Shown piece by piece: positions 1,788 through 32,353 of a DNA stretch of 48,579 nucleotides; within the stretch, counting starts at the first letter, position 1, and each line of letters starts with the position of its first letter. Under the pieces are notes generated by a model. It made no database searches, was not told where the DNA came from, and saw nothing but the letters and a program-made list of their open reading frames with translations. Source of the DNA: an uncultured Clostridia bacterium (GTDB lineage Bacteria; Bacillota; Dehalobacteriia; UBA4068); contig CALYAP010000024.1 in NCBI GenBank assembly GCA_944393575.1, positions 1 to 48,579 on the forward strand, in the 5' to 3' direction. The position numbers and the translations under genes were made by a program.

Positions 1788-1964
1788 CTAAAAGCCGACC
1801 ACGATAATTTTTACTACCAGGGCAATAATGATAACTGCCCCAATCACAATGAAAACAGAATAAACCTTTCGCGACTGAGCGTCACTCTTATCCTTAATCA
1901 AGTAATAAATGCCGGCGATCAAAATAGCCAGCCCAGCCAATAACCCTATAATCGTGCCAATCAT
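1788..1964 (-). CDS. small two-helix membrane protein coupled to the P-type ATPase
   Basis: A 58-aa protein, nearly all membrane: one helix (IGTIIGLLAGLAILIAGIYYL), a short charged loop (KDKSDAQSRK) and a second helix (VFIVIGAVIIIALVVKIIVV). The start at 1964 is preferred over an ATG five codons earlier because GGAGGA lies inside the last codons of the ATPase gene at the right distance. The stop of the ATPase and this start share a base (TAATG), so the two are translationally coupled. There are no metal-binding residues, so it is more likely a subunit or stabiliser of the pump than a chaperone. The family is not recognised. Confidence 0.7.
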   Translation of the reverse strand: MIGTIIGLLAGLAILIAGIYYLIKDKSDAQSRKVYSVFIVIGAVIIIALVVKIIVVGF

Positions 1965-3832
1965 TATTTTTTCCTCCATTTCAATAATAAAGATGAATTG
2001 ATAATCACTAATACTGATCCTGCATTATGGACCAACGCGCCAACTACGGGGTTCAAAATACCGCTGATCGCCAAAATGATCGCCACAAAATTCAGCAACA
2101 TGGAGAAAGTCAAATTAGCTTTAATAGTGGTCATCATTCTTTTAGCCAAATACAGCAAATGCGGCAATTCTTTAATATCGTCATCTACCAGCACGATATC
2201 TGCGGCATCGACTGCGATATCACTGCCCACACCGCCCATAGCAATGCCAACATAAGCTTTCTTTAGCGCCGGGGCATCATTGATGCCATCGCCGATCATG
2301 CAGACTTTTTGGTTATTTTGTTGGTAAGCCTCAATACATTGCAATTTATCCTCTGGCAAGCACTCTGCTCGGACTTCATGGATCTGTAGCTGGCTAGCAA
2401 TATTCTGCGCGGCATTCTGATGATCACCAGTCAGCAGAACCGGAGTTACCCCAGCCCGCTCAACCTCCAGGATCATATCCTTAGCATTTTCTCTCAAGGT
2501 ATCAGACAGGGCTATCACCCCTGCCAAAGACCCTTCGACAGCCAGATAGATAATAGTACATCCCTGAGATAGGTATTGGTCTGCTAAAGCAGACTGATCC
2601 AAATTAAGAGTAATATGCGCTGCTGTCAGCATTTCCCTGTTTCCTGCCATCACCTTTTGACCTTCGATCATAGCCTCTACTCCGCGTCCGGGATGCATCT
2701 GGAACTGCTCCGCTGCCAATAATTCACCCTGATTTGCATTGCGATAGGCAGTCACCACTGCCTTCCCCAGCGGATGCTCGGAATAAATCTCTACACTGGC
2801 GGCATAAAGCAACAACTTATCATGAGACCACTCTGCGTTAAAGCTATGGATAGCCGTAACCTCTGGTCGGCCATAAGTAAGGGTACCTGTTTTATCAAAG
2901 GTAATTTTAGAGACTTGAGCTAAGCGTTCCAGCGCATCCCCTACACTGACCAGAAAACCATGCTTAGTAGCATTACCAATAGCCGCCATAATAGCTGTTG
3001 GGGTAGCCAAAACCAAGGCACAGGGACAAAAAACAACAAGAATAGTAACTGCCCGAATAATCTCTCCGCTGATGATCCACGTCAAGGCAGCAGCTGTCAG
3101 AGCAATGACCACGATCCAAGTGGCCCAACGGTCTGCAATACCGACGATTTTAGCCTTGCCAGCATCAGCAGACTGTACCAGGCGGATCATTCTCTGGATA
3201 GAACTGTCCTCGCCAACCTTTGTCGCCTTCATTTCAAAAGCGCCAAATTGGTTAACCGTACCACTGGAAACACTATCACCAACGCTTTTATCCACGGGCA
3301 AAGATTCGCCAGTCATCACGGACTGGTTGATCGAGGTTTCACCAGCTATGATTTCACCATCAACGGGTATGGTCTCGCCGGGCAAAACCCGTAGGATATC
3401 ACCGACATTCACCAGCTCCGCAGCAATGATTTCTTCTCTGCCGTCAAGTAAGCGGCGTGCCGTTTGTGGAGTCAGATGTACTAGCTTCTCTATCCCGGCC
3501 CGCGCCTTAGCCACAGTCAAATCTTCCAGCAAAGCGCCCAGCTGCATAATGAAAGCCACCTCACCGGCAGCAAAATCCTCGCCAATAATCACTGAAGCGA
3601 TCAGAGCGATAGATACTAGGACATCAGCCTTGATATCAAAAGCTGTTACCAGCCCAATGATTGCTTCCAAAATGATGGGAATGCCACATAAAACAATGGC
3701 AATCCAAGCAGCATCAAAGGGCAGGGGTATTAAATCGAAGATACTGATGATCAAAGCTATGCCAGAGATAACCAGACAGCAGATATCCTTCTTGACCCCG
3801 CCCCATTCTAGAAAAGCTTCTAGTTTATCCAT
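1964..3832 (-). CDS. heavy-metal P1B-type ATPase lacking an N-terminal HMA domain
   Basis: A 622-aa metal efflux ATPase. It shows the transmembrane metal motif CPC (C269 and C271, in FCPCALVLATPTA), the phosphorylated Asp in DKTGTLT (D313), TGES, TGDHQNAA and GDGINDAPAL. There is no N-terminal CxxC metal-binding domain; the protein starts almost directly at the first membrane helices. The last helix carries HNAGSVLVIINSS (H602), not the YN and MxxSS pattern of Cu(I) pumps, nor the DxG of classic Zn/Cd pumps. The nearby CsoR and CsoR-like operator argue for copper, so the substrate is uncertain. The start at 3832 is chosen over an ATG at 3859 because the latter lies inside the operator and the former has AAAGGACGG before it. 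Confidence 0.88.
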   Translation of the reverse strand: MDKLEAFLEWGGVKKDICCLVISGIALIISIFDLIPLPFDAAWIAIVLCGIPIILEAIIGLVTAFDIKADVLVSIALIASVIIGEDFAAGEVAFIMQLGALLEDLTVAKARAGIEKLVHLTPQTARRLLDGREEIIAAELVNVGDILRVLPGETIPVDGEIIAGETSINQSVMTGESLPVDKSVGDSVSSGTVNQFGAFEMKATKVGEDSSIQRMIRLVQSADAGKAKIVGIADRWATWIVVIALTAAALTWIISGEIIRAVTILVVFCPCALVLATPTAIMAAIGNATKHGFLVSVGDALERLAQVSKITFDKTGTLTYGRPEVTAIHSFNAEWSHDKLLLYAASVEIYSEHPLGKAVVTAYRNANQGELLAAEQFQMHPGRGVEAMIEGQKVMAGNREMLTAAHITLNLDQSALADQYLSQGCTIIYLAVEGSLAGVIALSDTLRENAKDMILEVERAGVTPVLLTGDHQNAAQNIASQLQIHEVRAECLPEDKLQCIEAYQQNNQKVCMIGDGINDAPALKKAYVGIAMGGVGSDIAVDAADIVLVDDDIKELPHLLYLAKRMMTTIKANLTFSMLLNFVAIILAISGILNPVVGALVHNAGSVLVIINSSLLLKWRKK

Positions 3833-3854
3833 GAATGTTACCGTCCTTTCTATA

Positions 3855-3895
3855 CCCATAGGGGTATAGGCATATTATACCTATACCCCTATGGG
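3855..3895. promoter_or_regulatory. 41-bp perfect dyad with CsoR-like sites over the ATPase promoter
   Basis: CCCATAGGGGTATAGG (3855-3870) and its exact complement CCTATACCCCTATGGG (3880-3895) flank a 9-bp centre that contains the -10. Each arm is itself a CsoR-type imperfect dyad (TATACCC-ATA-GGGGTATA). Known CsoR operators have G/C tracts flanked by TA in this way. Two CsoR tetramers could bind face to face and occlude the promoter. Confidence 0.75.
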
Positions 3896-4528: not shown

Positions 4529-5128
4529 TTAGCAGCTAATCTGTACCGGCAGTTTGGTTTTCAGACAGCAGCCACAGATCTCAAACTCCAGTCCTCCGGC
4601 AATGGTAACCGTTGGATCACCATTTCCCGGCTTAATATCAGCACAGGAAGTGCGGATACATTTACTGTATTCACACAACATCCCACAGCAATTGATATAG
4701 CATACTATTACCTTATAGCAAATAACTAAACGGCAGTTGTTCCAATACCAATCGGTCAATTCGGCACAAACTCTTTTAACACAACGATGGCGGGGAATAC
4801 GAAACTCAGCAAATAAGTTATAGTTTACCACCCGAGGACAACATTCAACATCTGCACACACCATATTACATGGTGAGGGCGGACAAGGTTGGGGTGGACA
4901 TGGCGGCGGGCAAGGCGGTGGACAGGGACGGGGCGGACAGGGCTCCGGCTTAGGCGGTGGACAAGGGCGGGGTGGACACGGTTCTGGCCGCGGCTGGCCG
5001 CAGGGGATATCGCATTCACACCACCGGGATGGCTTAGTACAGATAAAAGGCAAGGGCAAGCATATCATAGGGAAGCCATTATGACAGCTTTGGTCATTGC
5101 CCCAAAAATTGTCACAACTAAAGGACAT
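4529..5128 (-). CDS. Cys/Pro-rich protein with CPP repeats, possibly a spore-coat component
   Basis: A 199-aa protein of no recognised family. About residues 38-90 form a low-complexity stretch of repeated C-P-P, P-R-P and P-E-P units; the C-terminal half (about 90-199) is a Cys-rich domain with many CC and CxxC pairs and a hydrophobic core (RLVICYKVIVCYINCCG) that ends in ICGCCLKTKLPVQISC. There is no signal peptide or membrane segment. The start at 5128 follows AAAGGAG; an ATG 14 codons earlier has no ribosome site. Dense Cys with a Pro-rich linker recalls cross-linked coat or exosporium proteins of spore formers, which fits the gpr and ylbJ genes in the window, but this is inference. Confidence 0.75.
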   Translation of the reverse strand: MSFSCDNFWGNDQSCHNGFPMICLPLPFICTKPSRWCECDIPCGQPRPEPCPPRPCPPPKPEPCPPRPCPPPCPPPCPPQPCPPSPCNMVCADVECCPRVVNYNLFAEFRIPRHRCVKRVCAELTDWYWNNCRLVICYKVIVCYINCCGMLCEYSKCIRTSCADIKPGNGDPTVTIAGGLEFEICGCCLKTKLPVQISC

Positions 5129-5195
5129 TGTATCAGCTCCTTTCAAATCATCCTTATACATCTTATTCAATAAAGGACAAAGGGTGCAGACACGC

Positions 5196-5306: not shown

Positions 5307-6068
5307 ATGAAATGTTGGGAGCAAACTACTTTACGCTATTACTATGAAGGGCTGGCATGGGGGGATTATCCCAGACTGATCATGCAACGCATCATACATG
5401 AGCCTAACTCTTGCCACAGTCTGCTTGATATCTGCAGCGGACCAGGAGCTTTTTCTCTCTATTCACTGCAACAAGGGTGGGAAACCACTGCAGTCGATCT
5501 TTCTGATATTGCATTATCTGCATTAAGGGAAAAAGCTCTGGAATATCCGCGAAGCTGTTTTCATGCGGTATATGATGATTTTATTAATGCCTCACTGCCG
5601 CAGGCAGACATCGCTGTAGCTGCCTGCTGTTTTTATGAGCAAATGACCACAGATACGGCACTGCAAAAAATTATTGACAGCGCTAAGCAGATCGCGTTGT
5701 TTGTCCAACATCAAGATCCCTCTCACCCAGAATTTTTAACCGATGGACTGCCGATTGATCCAGAAAAGAAACCGGTTCGCTGGAACAACTATCCTATTGA
5801 AGAAAAGCTGCAAAAATTGGCTGATGCTCAGGGGCTAACACTTTATAAGGATAGCCGGGAATGCGATTTTGGCTGTCTGTACACGCCAGATGATGAAATT
5901 TTGCTTGATTTTGTCAGCCGTAAAACAGGGGTCACCGACCGGCAGCTGCTGCGGAACCATCTCCAAAAAATAGCTATACCAAAGGGAGACCACCTTTGGT
6001 TGCCTAATCCACGAGCTTTCATCTTTTTCTGGCTCAATAAAACGGCTATAACTGTTGCCAATGATTAA
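5307..6068 (+). CDS. class I SAM-dependent methyltransferase
   Basis: A 253-aa cytoplasmic protein. Residues 39-50 (LLDICSGPGAFS) are the glycine-rich SAM-binding motif I, followed by VDLSD (motif II acidic residue) and a motif around QADIAVAACCFYEQM. The C-terminal third is not a standard RNA, DNA or quinone methyltransferase domain and contains several Cys and Trp residues. The substrate cannot be told. The start has AAGGAG eleven bases upstream. It stands alone between its own promoter and a strong terminator, so context gives no further clue. Confidence 0.8.
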   Translation: MKCWEQTTLRYYYEGLAWGDYPRLIMQRIIHEPNSCHSLLDICSGPGAFSLYSLQQGWETTAVDLSDIALSALREKALEYPRSCFHAVYDDFINASLPQADIAVAACCFYEQMTTDTALQKIIDSAKQIALFVQHQDPSHPEFLTDGLPIDPEKKPVRWNNYPIEEKLQKLADAQGLTLYKDSRECDFGCLYTPDDEILLDFVSRKTGVTDRQLLRNHLQKIAIPKGDHLWLPNPRAFIFFWLNKTAITVAND

Positions 6069-14674: not shown

Positions 14675-14703
14675 AGGACAGACACACGGTGTCTGTCCTT
14701 TTC
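14675..14703 (+). terminator. terminator ending the ABC/adaptor locus
   Basis: AGGACAGACAC (14675-14685) and GTGTCTGTCCT (14689-14699) form an 11-bp perfect stem with a 3-base loop and a short T run. Confidence 0.88.
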
Positions 14704-14732
14704 ATATGATAGCGTATAAAGGAGGGTTGAAT

Positions 14733-15173
14733 ATGCAGGGTATGCAGGACATACTGGGGATGTTAGGTAGTCTCGGCGGCCTTGGTGGAGGCACAGAGGG
14801 ACTTGGGGGACTCGGTGGTTTAGCCGGCGCCCTCGGAGGCTTAGGTAGCTTAGGTAATATGTCCGGGACAGCAGGTGAAAATAATCCCTTGGCAATGTTA
14901 TCCATGCTCAGCACCCTTTCACAGCTTGGCAAGGGAGGAAATGGCATCGGTGATCTCGGCGATATTTTAGGTTCCTTTACCGCCGGAGACAGCGATAACG
15001 AATTTGCTGATGATAATGACGAGGAGTCTATTGAGGTGAGTTCGCATGACAATAACCCGCAACCACCAGCAGACCCGTGTAGTCATTGCCGAGTTCGCTG
15101 CGACCGGGCAGGGCTTAGCCTCCCGCCTTATGAAGATGTTCGCAAGATGGCAGCGAATTGGTACCGCTATTAA
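14733..15173 (+). CDS. Gly/Leu-rich protein with a C-terminal CxxC tail
   Basis: A 146-aa protein of unknown family. Residues 1-75 are built from Gly-Gly-Leu and Leu-Gly-Ser units (MLGSLGGLGGG and similar), residues about 85-110 are strongly acidic (GDSDNEFADDNDEESIE), and the end carries CSHCRVRC and a Tyr-rich terminus (NWYRY). The start is at 14733, eight bases after GGAGG, not the ATG at 14706 that precedes the ribosome site. It follows the terminator of the ABC locus, so it is probably a separate unit with the next small gene. A structural, perhaps spore-surface, role is possible but not shown. Confidence 0.75.
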   Translation: MQGMQDILGMLGSLGGLGGGTEGLGGLGGLAGALGGLGSLGNMSGTAGENNPLAMLSMLSTLSQLGKGGNGIGDLGDILGSFTAGDSDNEFADDNDEESIEVSSHDNNPQPPADPCSHCRVRCDRAGLSLPPYEDVRKMAANWYRY

Positions 15174-15725: not shown

Positions 15726-15908
15726 CTAGCACATATCACAAGTCGTATTGCACAGGATCTGGGTGAGGAACTGCAACACCACCAAGATGATTATCAGGTT
15801 AATGATGCAGGCAAAGCTATTGCCTCCTCCGCAAAAACCATTGTTCGAAGCACAGGCGTTCTGGGTGTTATCCATTGCCGGTTGGGAATAAGCGTTGTAG
15901 CATACCAT
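15726..15908 (-). CDS. small Gly/Cys-rich tail-anchored protein, copy B
   Basis: A 60-aa protein: a polar N-terminus with Gly/Asn/Cys (ACASNNGFCGGGNSF), one hydrophobic helix (CIINLIIILVVLQFLTQIL) and a Cys-ending tail (CNTTCDMC). The layout recalls very small Gly-rich membrane-tail proteins of the YjcZ kind found in sporulating Bacillota, but the Cys content is unusual. GGAGG stands eight bases before the start. It lies just after a paralogue with the same plan (copy A), sharing the NLIIxxxVLxFL core, so the pair arose by duplication. Confidence 0.75.
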   Translation of the reverse strand: MVCYNAYSQPAMDNTQNACASNNGFCGGGNSFACIINLIIILVVLQFLTQILCNTTCDMC

Positions 15909-15923
15909 AAGTTATTCCTCCCT

Positions 15924-16076
15924 TCAGCAACCAGTGCCGCAGCTGAGACCATTATTGCCGCTGATGATATTGCAGAGAAATTCTAATACGATGAAAAGAA
16001 TTATCAGATTGAGCAGGCAGCTCCACAGCTCGCTACCGCCGCATGCGTCACCACAGCCATTACCAAAATTGAACAT
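15924..16076 (-). CDS. small Gly/Cys-rich tail-anchored protein, copy A
   Basis: A 50-aa protein starting MFNFGNGCGDACGG, then one helix (LLNLIILFIVLEFLCNII) and a Gly/Cys tail (GLSCGTGC). The start at 16076 is set by AAAGGAG; a longer frame to 16229 has no ribosome site. It is a paralogue of the downstream copy with 15 bases between them and likely the same transcript. Paired Cys residues at both ends of a single helix suggest disulfide cross-linking or metal binding at a membrane face. No characterised family is recognised. Confidence 0.75.
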   Translation of the reverse strand: MFNFGNGCGDACGGSELWSCLLNLIILFIVLEFLCNIISGNNGLSCGTGC

Positions 16077-16257
16077 TGTCATCTCTCCTTTAGCCTTTAT
16101 ATATTTTTTGTCCTGGGCTCCTGCGGTTACGGCGTTGCGGTACAGCCAATATCCTAGGAGGGAGCGCGGCCTTTCCGGTCGCCGTGTTGTAATTTCCGGA
16201 ACCACAGGCTTCGCCCAGTCATAGTACATGATATGCAGAGGCCAGAGAATGGGTGTA
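16077..16257. other. non-coding stretch between divergent units
   Basis: No gene is supported here. It should hold the minus-strand promoter of the small Cys-rich pair; no clear sigma-A boxes were found, which would be in line with a sporulation sigma factor but does not show it. Confidence 0.35.
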
Positions 16258-28903: not shown

Positions 28904-30031
28904 TTGACTAAACATGGCAATAAAACTAATAAAATCCTACTTATCCTGCTTATCGGACTAACCATCTCGATGGTGGCTCAGCCTAGCCTGGCTTATCAAT
29001 CAGCTACCAGAGGGCTTGAGCTATGGTGGACTGTCGTCACCCCTGCGCTGTTGCCTTTCTTCTTTATCAGTGAGCTTTTGATGGAAATGAACATTTCCCG
29101 CTATCTCTCATATGCCATGAGTCCTCTAATGCGTCCACTGTTCAACCTACCCGGATGCGCAGCTCTGGCAGTGGCCTTAGGCTTCTGCTCCGGGTTTCCC
29201 AGCGGAGCATCGATCACGGCTTCGCTGCGGCGAAAAAATGAGATCACCCGTGCTGAGGGAGAGCGAATGATCTGCTTTACTAATAATGCCGGTCCGCTAT
29301 ACATATCCGTAGCAGTAGCAGGAGGGTTGTTGCATTGTCCAAAGGCAGCTATTATTTTAGCAATCGTCCATTATGGAGGGAATCTGCTGATCGGAATCTT
29401 ATTAGGATTGGGCGCACGCAAACGCAAACGGAGCGAGAGGCAAAAAGAGATTGTCAGTGCTCCCGCGGCAGCCAGCGAGAGCATTGGCAACCATGATATT
29501 GGCCGCATCCTAAAAGCGGCAGTTTCCCGCGCTGCCGCTAATATCATCACTATAGGATGTCTAATGATCTTTTTCTCAGTGATCAGTGGCAATATTTCTG
29601 CCTTGAACCTACCAGGGACACCACAAATACAAGCCTTTTTCCAAGGATTTTGGGAGATGAGCTTAGGCATCAATGTCCTGGCAGACAGCTCACTCAGTCT
29701 CCAGCAAATCATTCCCGTCGCTGCAGCGATCCTTGGCTTTGGCGGCATATCAGTACAAATGCAGGTATTAGCCATGGTCGGTGATACGGATATCCGCATC
29801 TTCCCCTATCTAGCCTGCCGGATCGGGCATGCTGTTTTTTCCTACCTGGCTGCCACGTTGCTTTGCTCCTGGATATCTTTGCCAGTATCAGCTATCACTA
29901 TCACCACAGGAGAGATCAACTTTTTCCTCTCATCGCTACAACTCTGTTGTGGTGCTCTAGCTATATTAGCAGGAATTTCTCTAGTGCTAATCGCTATTCG
30001 GCCGCTTTATCTGTATCATCATAAAAGCTGA
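28904..30031 (+). CDS. ylbJ: sporulation integral membrane protein, YlbJ-like
   Basis: A 375-aa polytopic membrane protein with about eight helices of the nucleoside-recognition/Gate type. It carries WWTVVTPALLPFFFISELLM and GFCSGFPSGASI, typical of YlbJ, which is needed for spore cortex formation and dipicolinate transport in B. subtilis relatives. The start is a TTG at 28904 with only a weak AAGGGG upstream. Its 3' end overlaps the convergent coiled-coil gene by 38 bases. It supports a spore-forming host. Confidence 0.85.
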   Translation: MTKHGNKTNKILLILLIGLTISMVAQPSLAYQSATRGLELWWTVVTPALLPFFFISELLMEMNISRYLSYAMSPLMRPLFNLPGCAALAVALGFCSGFPSGASITASLRRKNEITRAEGERMICFTNNAGPLYISVAVAGGLLHCPKAAIILAIVHYGGNLLIGILLGLGARKRKRSERQKEIVSAPAAASESIGNHDIGRILKAAVSRAAANIITIGCLMIFFSVISGNISALNLPGTPQIQAFFQGFWEMSLGINVLADSSLSLQQIIPVAAAILGFGGISVQMQVLAMVGDTDIRIFPYLACRIGHAVFSYLAATLLCSWISLPVSAITITTGEINFFLSSLQLCCGALAILAGISLVLIAIRPLYLYHHKS

Positions 30032-31357: not shown

Positions 31358-32353
31358 ATGAAAAAGACAGTTGACTTTTGGGAAAATCTACAAGGTTGTT
31401 CAGCTCTTGCTGCTAGGTTAGATCTGGCAATAGAAGCCAATGCCCTGCTCCGTGGCACTGCTAATATTGAGATACCTGGTGTTGCAGAAGAGGTACAACA
31501 GTCCAGCGGCGTGATCATCCATATTATCACCGTGCTCGATGAGCGGGGAGAAGAAGCCCTGCATCGGCCGCAAGGCAAATATATCACCCTCGATATTCCC
31601 CCGGTAGAAAATGAAGAAACCATTGCTGATATCGCCTCAGTAGCAGCTAAACAACTCAGCAGTCTCCTACCAGTCACCGGCACCTTCAGCCGGCCGATCC
31701 TAGTGGTAGGGCTAGGCAATAATAACGCCATTCCCGACGCGCTTGGACCCCGTGTTATAGATCTAACTTATGCTACCCGTCACATTTTTCAGAACGGACA
31801 AAAGCCAGCCGGATTAGCGCCGGTATGTACGATAGCGCCAGGAGTATTAGGAAATTCCGGCATCGAAACCGCAGAGATCATCATGGGGATCTGTGAGCAT
31901 ATCCACCCAGCTGCACTGATCGTTGTCGATAGCTTGGCTGCCGCCTCAGTCACCCGGGTCGGCACCACCATCCAGATATCGGATACCGGCATCAAGCCTG
32001 GCAGCGGCATTGGCAACCGCCGTAATGGCATTGATGAAGACATGGCTGGATGTCCGGTGATAGCTATTGGCGTACCCACAGTAGTAGACACCGCCTCTAT
32101 CATCTCCGAGACCGTCAAAAGTCTGGACCGCTACTGGGAAGGAAAAGCCCAGTTATTCCCAACTAAAATCGATGAAGGCGCCTGTCAATTTGCGGAAAAA
32201 CAATTATTGGAACGCTTCCGGGGGCGGCTGATGGTTACACCTAAAGATATCGACGAGCTGATCGCTGATGATGCCGAAATCATCGCTTCAGCCATTGCCA
32301 TCACTATTCACCCGGGGGCGGACAAGAATAACTACCATGATTTTATCAGATAG
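31358..32353 (+). CDS. gpr: germination protease GPR
   Basis: A 331-aa aspartic-type protease that degrades small acid-soluble spore proteins at germination. It has the RxDLAIEA-like N-terminal core (ARLDLAIEANAL), GLGNNNAIPDALGP, APGVLGNSGIETAEI and the GVPTVVDTASI region; C-terminal VTPKDIDELI matches family ends. About 16 residues before ARLDLAIEA would be the propeptide removed on activation. No ribosome site is visible before the ATG at 31358. The gene proves spore formation in the lineage, or recent loss of it. Confidence 0.93.
   Translation: MKKTVDFWENLQGCSALAARLDLAIEANALLRGTANIEIPGVAEEVQQSSGVIIHIITVLDERGEEALHRPQGKYITLDIPPVENEETIADIASVAAKQLSSLLPVTGTFSRPILVVGLGNNNAIPDALGPRVIDLTYATRHIFQNGQKPAGLAPVCTIAPGVLGNSGIETAEIIMGICEHIHPAALIVVDSLAAASVTRVGTTIQISDTGIKPGSGIGNRRNGIDEDMAGCPVIAIGVPTVVDTASIISETVKSLDRYWEGKAQLFPTKIDEGACQFAEKQLLERFRGRLMVTPKDIDELIADDAEIIASAIAITIHPGADKNNYHDFIR

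What the first reader, a model, noticed from the sequence alone, without database searches (positions are those of the whole stretch)
4529..5128. Cys/Pro-rich 199-aa protein with CPP repeats
A run of CPP/PRP/PEP units joins a short N-terminal part to a Cys-dense domain with many CC pairs. This composition is rare in a cytosolic bacterial protein without a signal. Spore-coat or exosporium material, or a metal-binding sink next to the copper locus, are both possible.
Basis: partly seen in the sequence, partly recalled or inferred. Interest (0 to 1): 0.55.

Follow-up and report, generated by a model that had tools for sequence, protein, structure and literature searches.

The report
Likely cysteine-rich spore-surface protein
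A small bacterial protein full of cysteine and proline is a real, conserved gene in a group of uncultured spore-forming Clostridia, and the evidence points to a cross-linked building block of the spore's outer shell more than to a part of the neighbouring metal-transport genes.

Summary
In detail: window 4529-5128, minus strand, encodes 199 aa with 32 Cys and 36 Pro, with a Shine-Dalgarno and no signal-like N-terminus. It has a short N-terminal part, a 45-residue Cys/Pro linker and a C-terminal domain predicted with confidence as all-beta (pLDDT 91.9). Homologues of the same layout occur in 10 of 20 genomes of its family (6 of 13 genera). There is no meaningful Pfam, NCBIfam or PDB match. Outside the family only 2 weak hits appeared in a 398-genome phylum sample. 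The adjacent metal locus is not conserved. The genome carries GPR, a YlbJ-like protein, SpoIVA, SpoIIGA, SigE and SigK. Seven of nine upstream regions carry a SigK-type promoter (AC-N15..18-CATA) against 8 of 103 control ORFs; the window's own copy is degenerate. Best reading: a lineage-specific, SigK-controlled, disulfide-cross-linked spore coat or exosporium protein that works like CsxA, CotY or ExsY, with no homology to a named family found. No expression or spore data exist.

The parts
4529..5128 (-). CDS of the 199-aa Cys/Pro-rich protein (stop codon included)
   Evidence: open frame; homologues in 10 of 20 family genomes
5000..5128 (-). N-terminal part, residues 1-43, 7 Cys; contains ICLPL (residues 22-26); mostly low-confidence in the model
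4865..4999 (-). Cys/Pro linker, residues 44-88 (PEPCPPRPCPPP...), low-confidence in the model
4532..4849 (-). C-terminal domain, residues 94-199, predicted seven-strand all-beta fold
   Evidence: pLDDT 91.9, pTM 0.81; family alignments A2, A3, A7
5137..5143 (-). Shine-Dalgarno AAAGGAG
   Evidence: purine-rich equivalents upstream of homologues
5159..5185 (-). candidate SigK-type promoter, AC-N16-AATAAGATG (degenerate -10: AATA in place of CATA)
   Evidence: same place as the congener's AC-N16-AATACAATA; on its own not above shuffles (p about 0.57)
5307..6068 (+). divergent methyltransferase-like gene, also beside the congener ortholog
31358..32353 (+). GPR germination protease (shows a sporulating lineage)
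   Evidence: TIGR01441 309 bits, above cut-off
28904..30031 (+). YlbJ-like sporulation membrane protein
   Evidence: TIGR02871 258 bits, below its cut-off of 304.65

Best explanation
It is most likely a structural protein of the spore coat or exosporium, made late in the mother cell under SigK. The C-terminal beta domain is the building block. The flexible Cys/Pro arm and N-terminal part reach out to neighbours. The many thiols form disulfides between molecules once the layer assembles, giving a tough cross-linked layer. Shown here: the gene, its layout, its conservation, the domain prediction, the sporulation genes of the host, and a SigK-type promoter shared by most of the family. Inferred: expression in the mother cell, place on the spore, self-assembly and disulfide cross-linking.
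For: Homologues with Pro/Cys-rich arms of different sequence and the same C-terminal domain in 10 of 20 genomes of the family; 9.1-18.6% Cys in the ten sequences measured, two of them partial. Host has GPR, SpoIVA (32 of 35 order genomes), SigE, SigK and SpoIIGA. AC-N15..18-CATA lies within 100 nt upstream in 7 of 9 family members against 8 of 103 other ORFs of the same loci (Fisher P 5.6e-6). In C. difficile the SigK -35 is AC where SigE has ATA, and one SigK promoter reads CATATAAT (PMC3789822, section 8 and passages). This genome's SigE and SigK differ by Gln/Arg in a way that resembles the -35 contact reported there. No hydrophobic N-terminal signal. CsxA, ExsY and CotY show that unrelated Cys-rich proteins build disulfide-linked spore layers inside the mother cell (PMC7333573).
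Against: The window's own promoter lacks the C of CATA, scores 8 of 10 and is not above shuffles by itself. The divergent spacer has another conserved CATAAAA that could be the homologous -10 but has no AC at the right distance. 10 of 20 family genomes lack a recognisable homologue though nearly all of them have SpoIVA. One genome with a homologue, G012, gave no SpoIVA match (83% complete). Four of ten loci have a metal or oxyanion transporter nearby. No proteomic or expression data.
Confidence: 0.64

Rival explanations
1. A cytosolic thiol metal sink or metal-handling protein, here controlled with the adjacent CsoR-like repressor and P-type ATPase.
For: A CsoR-family repressor (PF02583) and a heavy-metal P-type ATPase (TIGR01525) lie directly downstream on the same strand; 32 Cys. 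A CopA-type ATPase lies about 1.3 kb from the G013 gene, FeoB about 0.8 kb from the G008 gene and a chromate-transporter pair about 0.5 kb from the G003 gene.
Against: The transporters differ from locus to locus and no metal gene was recognised by eye near the other six (G001, G002, G009, G012, G017, G018; whether 4 of 10 is more than chance was not tested). No metallothionein or other Pfam/NCBIfam match. No Cys column is common to all ten homologues, which suits cross-linking better than a defined metal site.
Confidence: 0.13
2. A mother-cell or spore protein with a non-structural task, for example a Cys-rich chaperone-like coat factor built on an alpha-crystallin-type sandwich (as recalled for Bacillus CotM).
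For: The listed VIA-align rows are alpha-crystallin, CS or p23-type domains, best Z 5.0, rmsd 3.9, 71 aligned.
Against: Z under 8 may mean only a common arrangement (note); Foldseek gives no match at E <= 0.001; no sequence link to HSP20 (hhalign probability 0.9%).
Confidence: 0.1
3. A secreted or vegetative cell-surface Cys-rich protein unconnected with spores.
For: No direct spore data here; Cys-rich proteins outside spores exist (general knowledge).
Against: No strongly hydrophobic 15-residue stretch near the start in the sequences measured; SigK-type promoter in most of the family.
Confidence: 0.09

Closest known systems
CsxA (Clostridium sporogenes/botulinum exosporium)
   Same: Cys-rich protein of a clostridial spore former; disulfide-linked assembly inside the mother cell is what is proposed here (PMC7333573, sections read)
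   Different: CsxA has 25 Cys and forms hexagonal sheets, shown by experiment. No CsxA sequence was at hand, so homology was not tested. The csxA cluster carries collagen-like and glycosyltransferase genes; the only G-x-y run in the window is the Gly-rich ORF at 14790-14861.
CotY / ExsY / CotZ (Bacillus)
   Same: Cys-rich self-assembling spore-surface proteins
   Different: No Pfam match of that kind for this protein
F-ENA (DUF4183) spore appendages
   Same: Small beta-rich head with an N-terminal extension; F-ENA hooks have a hydrophobic-hydrophobic-x-Pro motif, loosely like ICLPL here (PMC11952670, passages)
   Different: No DUF4183 match; this protein has a Cys/Pro arm and many Cys; the motif is not in all homologues
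SipL/SPOCS domain (PF12673)
   Same: Domain of clostridial spore-coat proteins with a similar strand pattern by eye
   Different: No PF12673 match in this genome, none over cut-off in 43 class genomes; hhalign probability 0.5%
Alpha-crystallin / CS domain
   Same: Nearest solved folds by VIA-align
   Different: Weak Z, no sequence relation

Membership tests
Cys-rich self-assembling spore-surface proteins (a functional kind: CsxA, CotY, ExsY, CdeC) | high Cys content without a signal peptide | tested here: met
   16.1% Cys; 9.1-18.6% in the ten homologues; no strongly hydrophobic N-terminal stretch by a simple hydropathy window (no signal-peptide program was run)
Cys-rich self-assembling spore-surface proteins (a functional kind: CsxA, CotY, ExsY, CdeC) | sporulating host | tested here: met
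   GPR, SpoIVA, SigE, SigK, SpoIIGA
Cys-rich self-assembling spore-surface proteins (a functional kind: CsxA, CotY, ExsY, CdeC) | mother-cell (SigK/SigE) expression | tested here: inconclusive
   AC-N15..18-CATA in 7 of 9 family members vs 8 of 103 controls, but the window copy has AATA; no transcript data
Cys-rich self-assembling spore-surface proteins (a functional kind: CsxA, CotY, ExsY, CdeC) | presence in the spore layer and disulfide-linked assembly | not testable with these tools
   needs spores or recombinant protein
CotZ/CotY/ExsY sequence family | Pfam/NCBIfam profile match | tested here: not met
CsxA sequence family | sequence similarity to CsxA | not tested
   no CsxA sequence was fetched
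SPOCS/SipL (PF12673) | profile match or profile-profile match | tested here: not met
Small heat-shock / alpha-crystallin (PF00011) | HSP20 profile match | tested here: not met
   no PF00011 match; hhalign 0.9%
Small heat-shock / alpha-crystallin (PF00011) | alpha-crystallin fold | tested here: inconclusive
   best Z 5.0
Metallothionein / copper chaperone | profile match | tested here: not met
Metallothionein / copper chaperone | conserved linkage to metal genes | tested here: inconclusive
   4 of 10 loci have a metal or oxyanion transporter near, each of another kind; the congener ortholog has none
F-ENA (DUF4183) | DUF4183 profile match | tested here: not met

The most novel reading that the evidence does not exclude
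A new, lineage-specific spore polymer: each subunit's N-terminal hydrophobic-Pro segment (ICLPL) adds a strand to the beta domain of the next subunit, as F-ENA hooks dock. The Cys/Pro arm between them is a disulfide-locked spacer whose length is free to vary, so a fibre or lattice forms and is then welded by cross-links. The full-length model gives residues 21-25 as the only strand outside the C-terminal domain, at low confidence.
Probability: 0.12. Interest if true: 0.65.

Novelty: new member of a known kind. Interest (0 to 1): 0.4.

Why it matters
Spore coats evolve fast, and many clostridial coat proteins cannot be found by similarity to Bacillus. This shows a Cys-rich protein family without a Pfam or NCBIfam model, confined as far as sampled to one family of uncultured Clostridia, tied to sporulation by a shared SigK-type promoter, and with a confidently predicted domain that lacks a clear structural match. 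If confirmed it supports the proposal (PMC7333573) that unrelated Cys-rich proteins have been used again and again to build spore shells.

Tried and rejected
Pfam and NCBIfam scans of the protein and of nine domain members gave nothing meaningful. The PDB sequence search gave nothing with the profile and only marginal hits with the single protein (best E 0.043, SP15 protein, residues 99-139), taken as chance. Foldseek against PDB and BFVD: none at E <= 0.001. VIA-align: only weak alpha-crystallin/CS-type rows; no SPOCS or ENA structure among the 50 shown, which excludes nothing. hhalign against 11 HSP20 and 24 SPOCS sequences from other genomes: negative, no better than HSP20 against SPOCS. 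Viral and phage relatives: none. I first suspected a SPOCS-like domain from the strand pattern; the tests did not bear it out. I first held the metal neighbours to be unique to the window and G013; one search corrected this to four of ten loci.

Hits dropped before counting: L013 (stops inside), L015 (33 of 102 positions) and L017 (inside a 455-aa frame); G015 (E 0.28, two stops) and a second G018 hit (E 0.51); G120 and G209 (E about 0.007, short). E-values of rows that were themselves in the profile are circular; G017 (1.9e-20) is the independent recovery. G001 has no upstream region (contig end), so 9 of 10 upstreams were used. The sigma consensus was fixed before I saw most of the upstream regions (the window, its congener and short stretches had been seen); the forms CATAT[AG]NT and [CA]ATA were chosen afterwards, and the spacing of 15-18 was widened. 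Pairs from one genus (window/G002, G012/G018, G009/G017) are not independent. Control ORFs were picked by a script and may include non-genes. The CATA control hits include two conserved Gly-rich genes that may be sporulation genes themselves.

Taxon: records of two congeners are titled Clostridia MAGs.

Full report
Observation. It has 199 residues, 32 Cys, 36 Pro and three CC pairs. An AAAGGAG stands upstream of the ATG. The layout is an N-terminal part (1-43), a linker with 26 Pro and 8 Cys in 45 residues (44-88) and a Cys-rich C-terminal part. No other window ORF of 150 aa or more comes near its Cys fraction (15.2% counted from an upstream in-frame ATG, next 5.2%).

It is a conserved gene. 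A single-sequence search found it in both other genomes of its genus. The G002 ortholog is 168 aa, and 66 of 97 residues match over the C-terminal domain; codon-position changes of 22/14/57 and dN 0.20, with dS not computable and taken as saturated, point to purifying selection on the protein. The G001 copy runs off its contig. A profile of the C-terminal domain found further members in other genera, and the enlarged profile recovered a new one, G017, at 1.9e-20. In the final search 10 of 20 genomes of the family have a clear member, from 6 of 13 genera; one more (G015, E 0.28, with stops) was discounted. In the class search 10 of 43 genomes have it, all in the same family. In a phylum sample of 398 genomes only four same-family members and two weak short hits appear. 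Members differ greatly in the arm: CPP/PRP/PEP here, CRPEPP repeats in G003, CPAYPCPTSPGR units in G012, HPCPPHPCPPPPPWP in G009. They keep the order of parts and hold 9.1-18.6% Cys. G018 has little Pro repeat.

Neighbourhood. In the window the next genes on the same strand are a CsoR-family repressor and a heavy-metal P-type ATPase. Beside the G002 ortholog there is the same divergent methyltransferase on one side but an EamA transporter on the other; G001, G012 and G018 also have an EamA-like neighbour. G009 and G017 have the gene beside a type II dehydroquinase. Three more loci have a transporter of metals or oxyanions near: CopA-type in G013 (about 1.3 kb, a patatin-like gene between), FeoB in G008 (about 0.8 kb) and a chromate-transporter pair in G003 (about 0.5 kb). 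So the window's metal locus is not a conserved partner, but 4 of 10 loci have something of the sort; whether that is more than chance was not tested.

Sporulation. GPR and a YlbJ-like protein are in the window (YlbJ is below its curated cut-off). SpoIVA occurs in this genome and in 32 of 35 genomes of the order. SigK (NF004471 above its cut-off, TIGR02846 just below), SigE (above cut-off) and SpoIIGA (208.6 bits against a cut-off of 209.55) are present. The aligned SigE and SigK differ by Gln to Arg in GIS(Q/R)SY, the kind of change that PMC3789822 links to ATA versus AC at -35 (section 8). That this is the same position is my reading.

Promoter. With a SigK-type consensus, G013 matched 10 of 10 positions and G002, G003, G012 and G018 9 of 10 (shuffle p 0.007 to 0.09); the window, G008, G009 and G017 scored 8 (p 0.47 to 0.57). 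Taken together, AC-N15..18-CATA occurs within 100 nt of the start in 7 of 9 members against 8 of 103 other ORFs of the same loci (P 5.6e-6), and the form with CATA or AATA in 9 of 9 against 18 of 103 (the second form was chosen after looking). The -10 sequences read CATATAATA, CATATATTG, CATATAGTG, CATATGATG and CATATACTG, like the CATATAAT of a C. difficile SigK promoter (PMC3789822 passage). The window and G002 have AATA instead, with the spacer well conserved between them. An alignment of eight upstreams leaves open that a conserved CATAAAA further up is their -10. So the promoter evidence is strong for the family and weak for this copy.

Structure. With three sequences AlphaFold2 gives the C-terminal domain a mean pLDDT of 91.9 and pTM of 0.81: seven strands, no helix. 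In the full-length model residues 1-97 are mostly below 50 to 60, and the only strand outside the domain is residues 21-25. Foldseek finds nothing convincing. VIA-align lists only alpha-crystallin and CS/p23-type domains, best Z 5.0, which by the tool's own note may be no more than a common arrangement. Sequence profiles do not link it to HSP20 or to SPOCS.

Interpretation. The most likely account is a SigK-controlled structural protein of the spore coat or exosporium that cross-links by disulfides. PMC7333573 (abstract, passages, sections 15 and 17) reports that CsxA, ExsY and CotY, without common sequence, do this, and proposes that many Cys-rich proteins of spore formers do likewise. This protein fits that kind by composition, host, lack of a signal and family promoter. 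No Cys column is shared by all ten homologues, which suits cross-linking better than a fixed metal site. Localisation and assembly remain inferred. It is not placed in any named sequence family: those that I could test are not met, and CsxA similarity was not tested.

Novelty. The sequence family has no Pfam or NCBIfam model at the sensitivity used. My paper searches were not aimed at it by name, as it has none, and their listings showed no description of it. As a kind of system it is known.

Noticed in passing
window 14686-15173 (+): Gly/Leu-rich protein (MQGMQDILGMLG..., ending PCSHCRVRCDRAGL...WYRY) with a near-consensus SigK-type promoter, AC-N15-CATATGATA (14686-14711), and a congener ortholog (L005:46-405, minus) whose upstream region also matches; no Pfam or NCBIfam match. 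A second candidate spore-coat gene.
   Followed up: partly
window 15726-16229 (-): Two small adjacent ORFs with a Cys/Gly-rich head, one hydrophobic stretch and a Cys-containing tail; they recall small YjcZ-like sporulation proteins (recall only); no NCBIfam match.
   Followed up: partly
window 1964-3859 (-): The P-type ATPase shows no Pfam heavy-metal-associated (HMA) domain and scores better on the general and cadmium models than on the copper model, so 'copper locus' is not established.
   Followed up: no
L033:8566-9524: The G013 homologue has a long Pro/Tyr/Asn-rich repeat arm and a run of N inside the gene, so its arm length is unknown.
   Followed up: no
G000 and its class: PF12673 (SipL/SPOCS) is found in 115 of 199 phylum genomes over cut-off but in none of 43 genomes of this class over cut-off, though SpoIVA is common in the order: the SpoIVA partner may be replaced or very diverged here.
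   Followed up: partly
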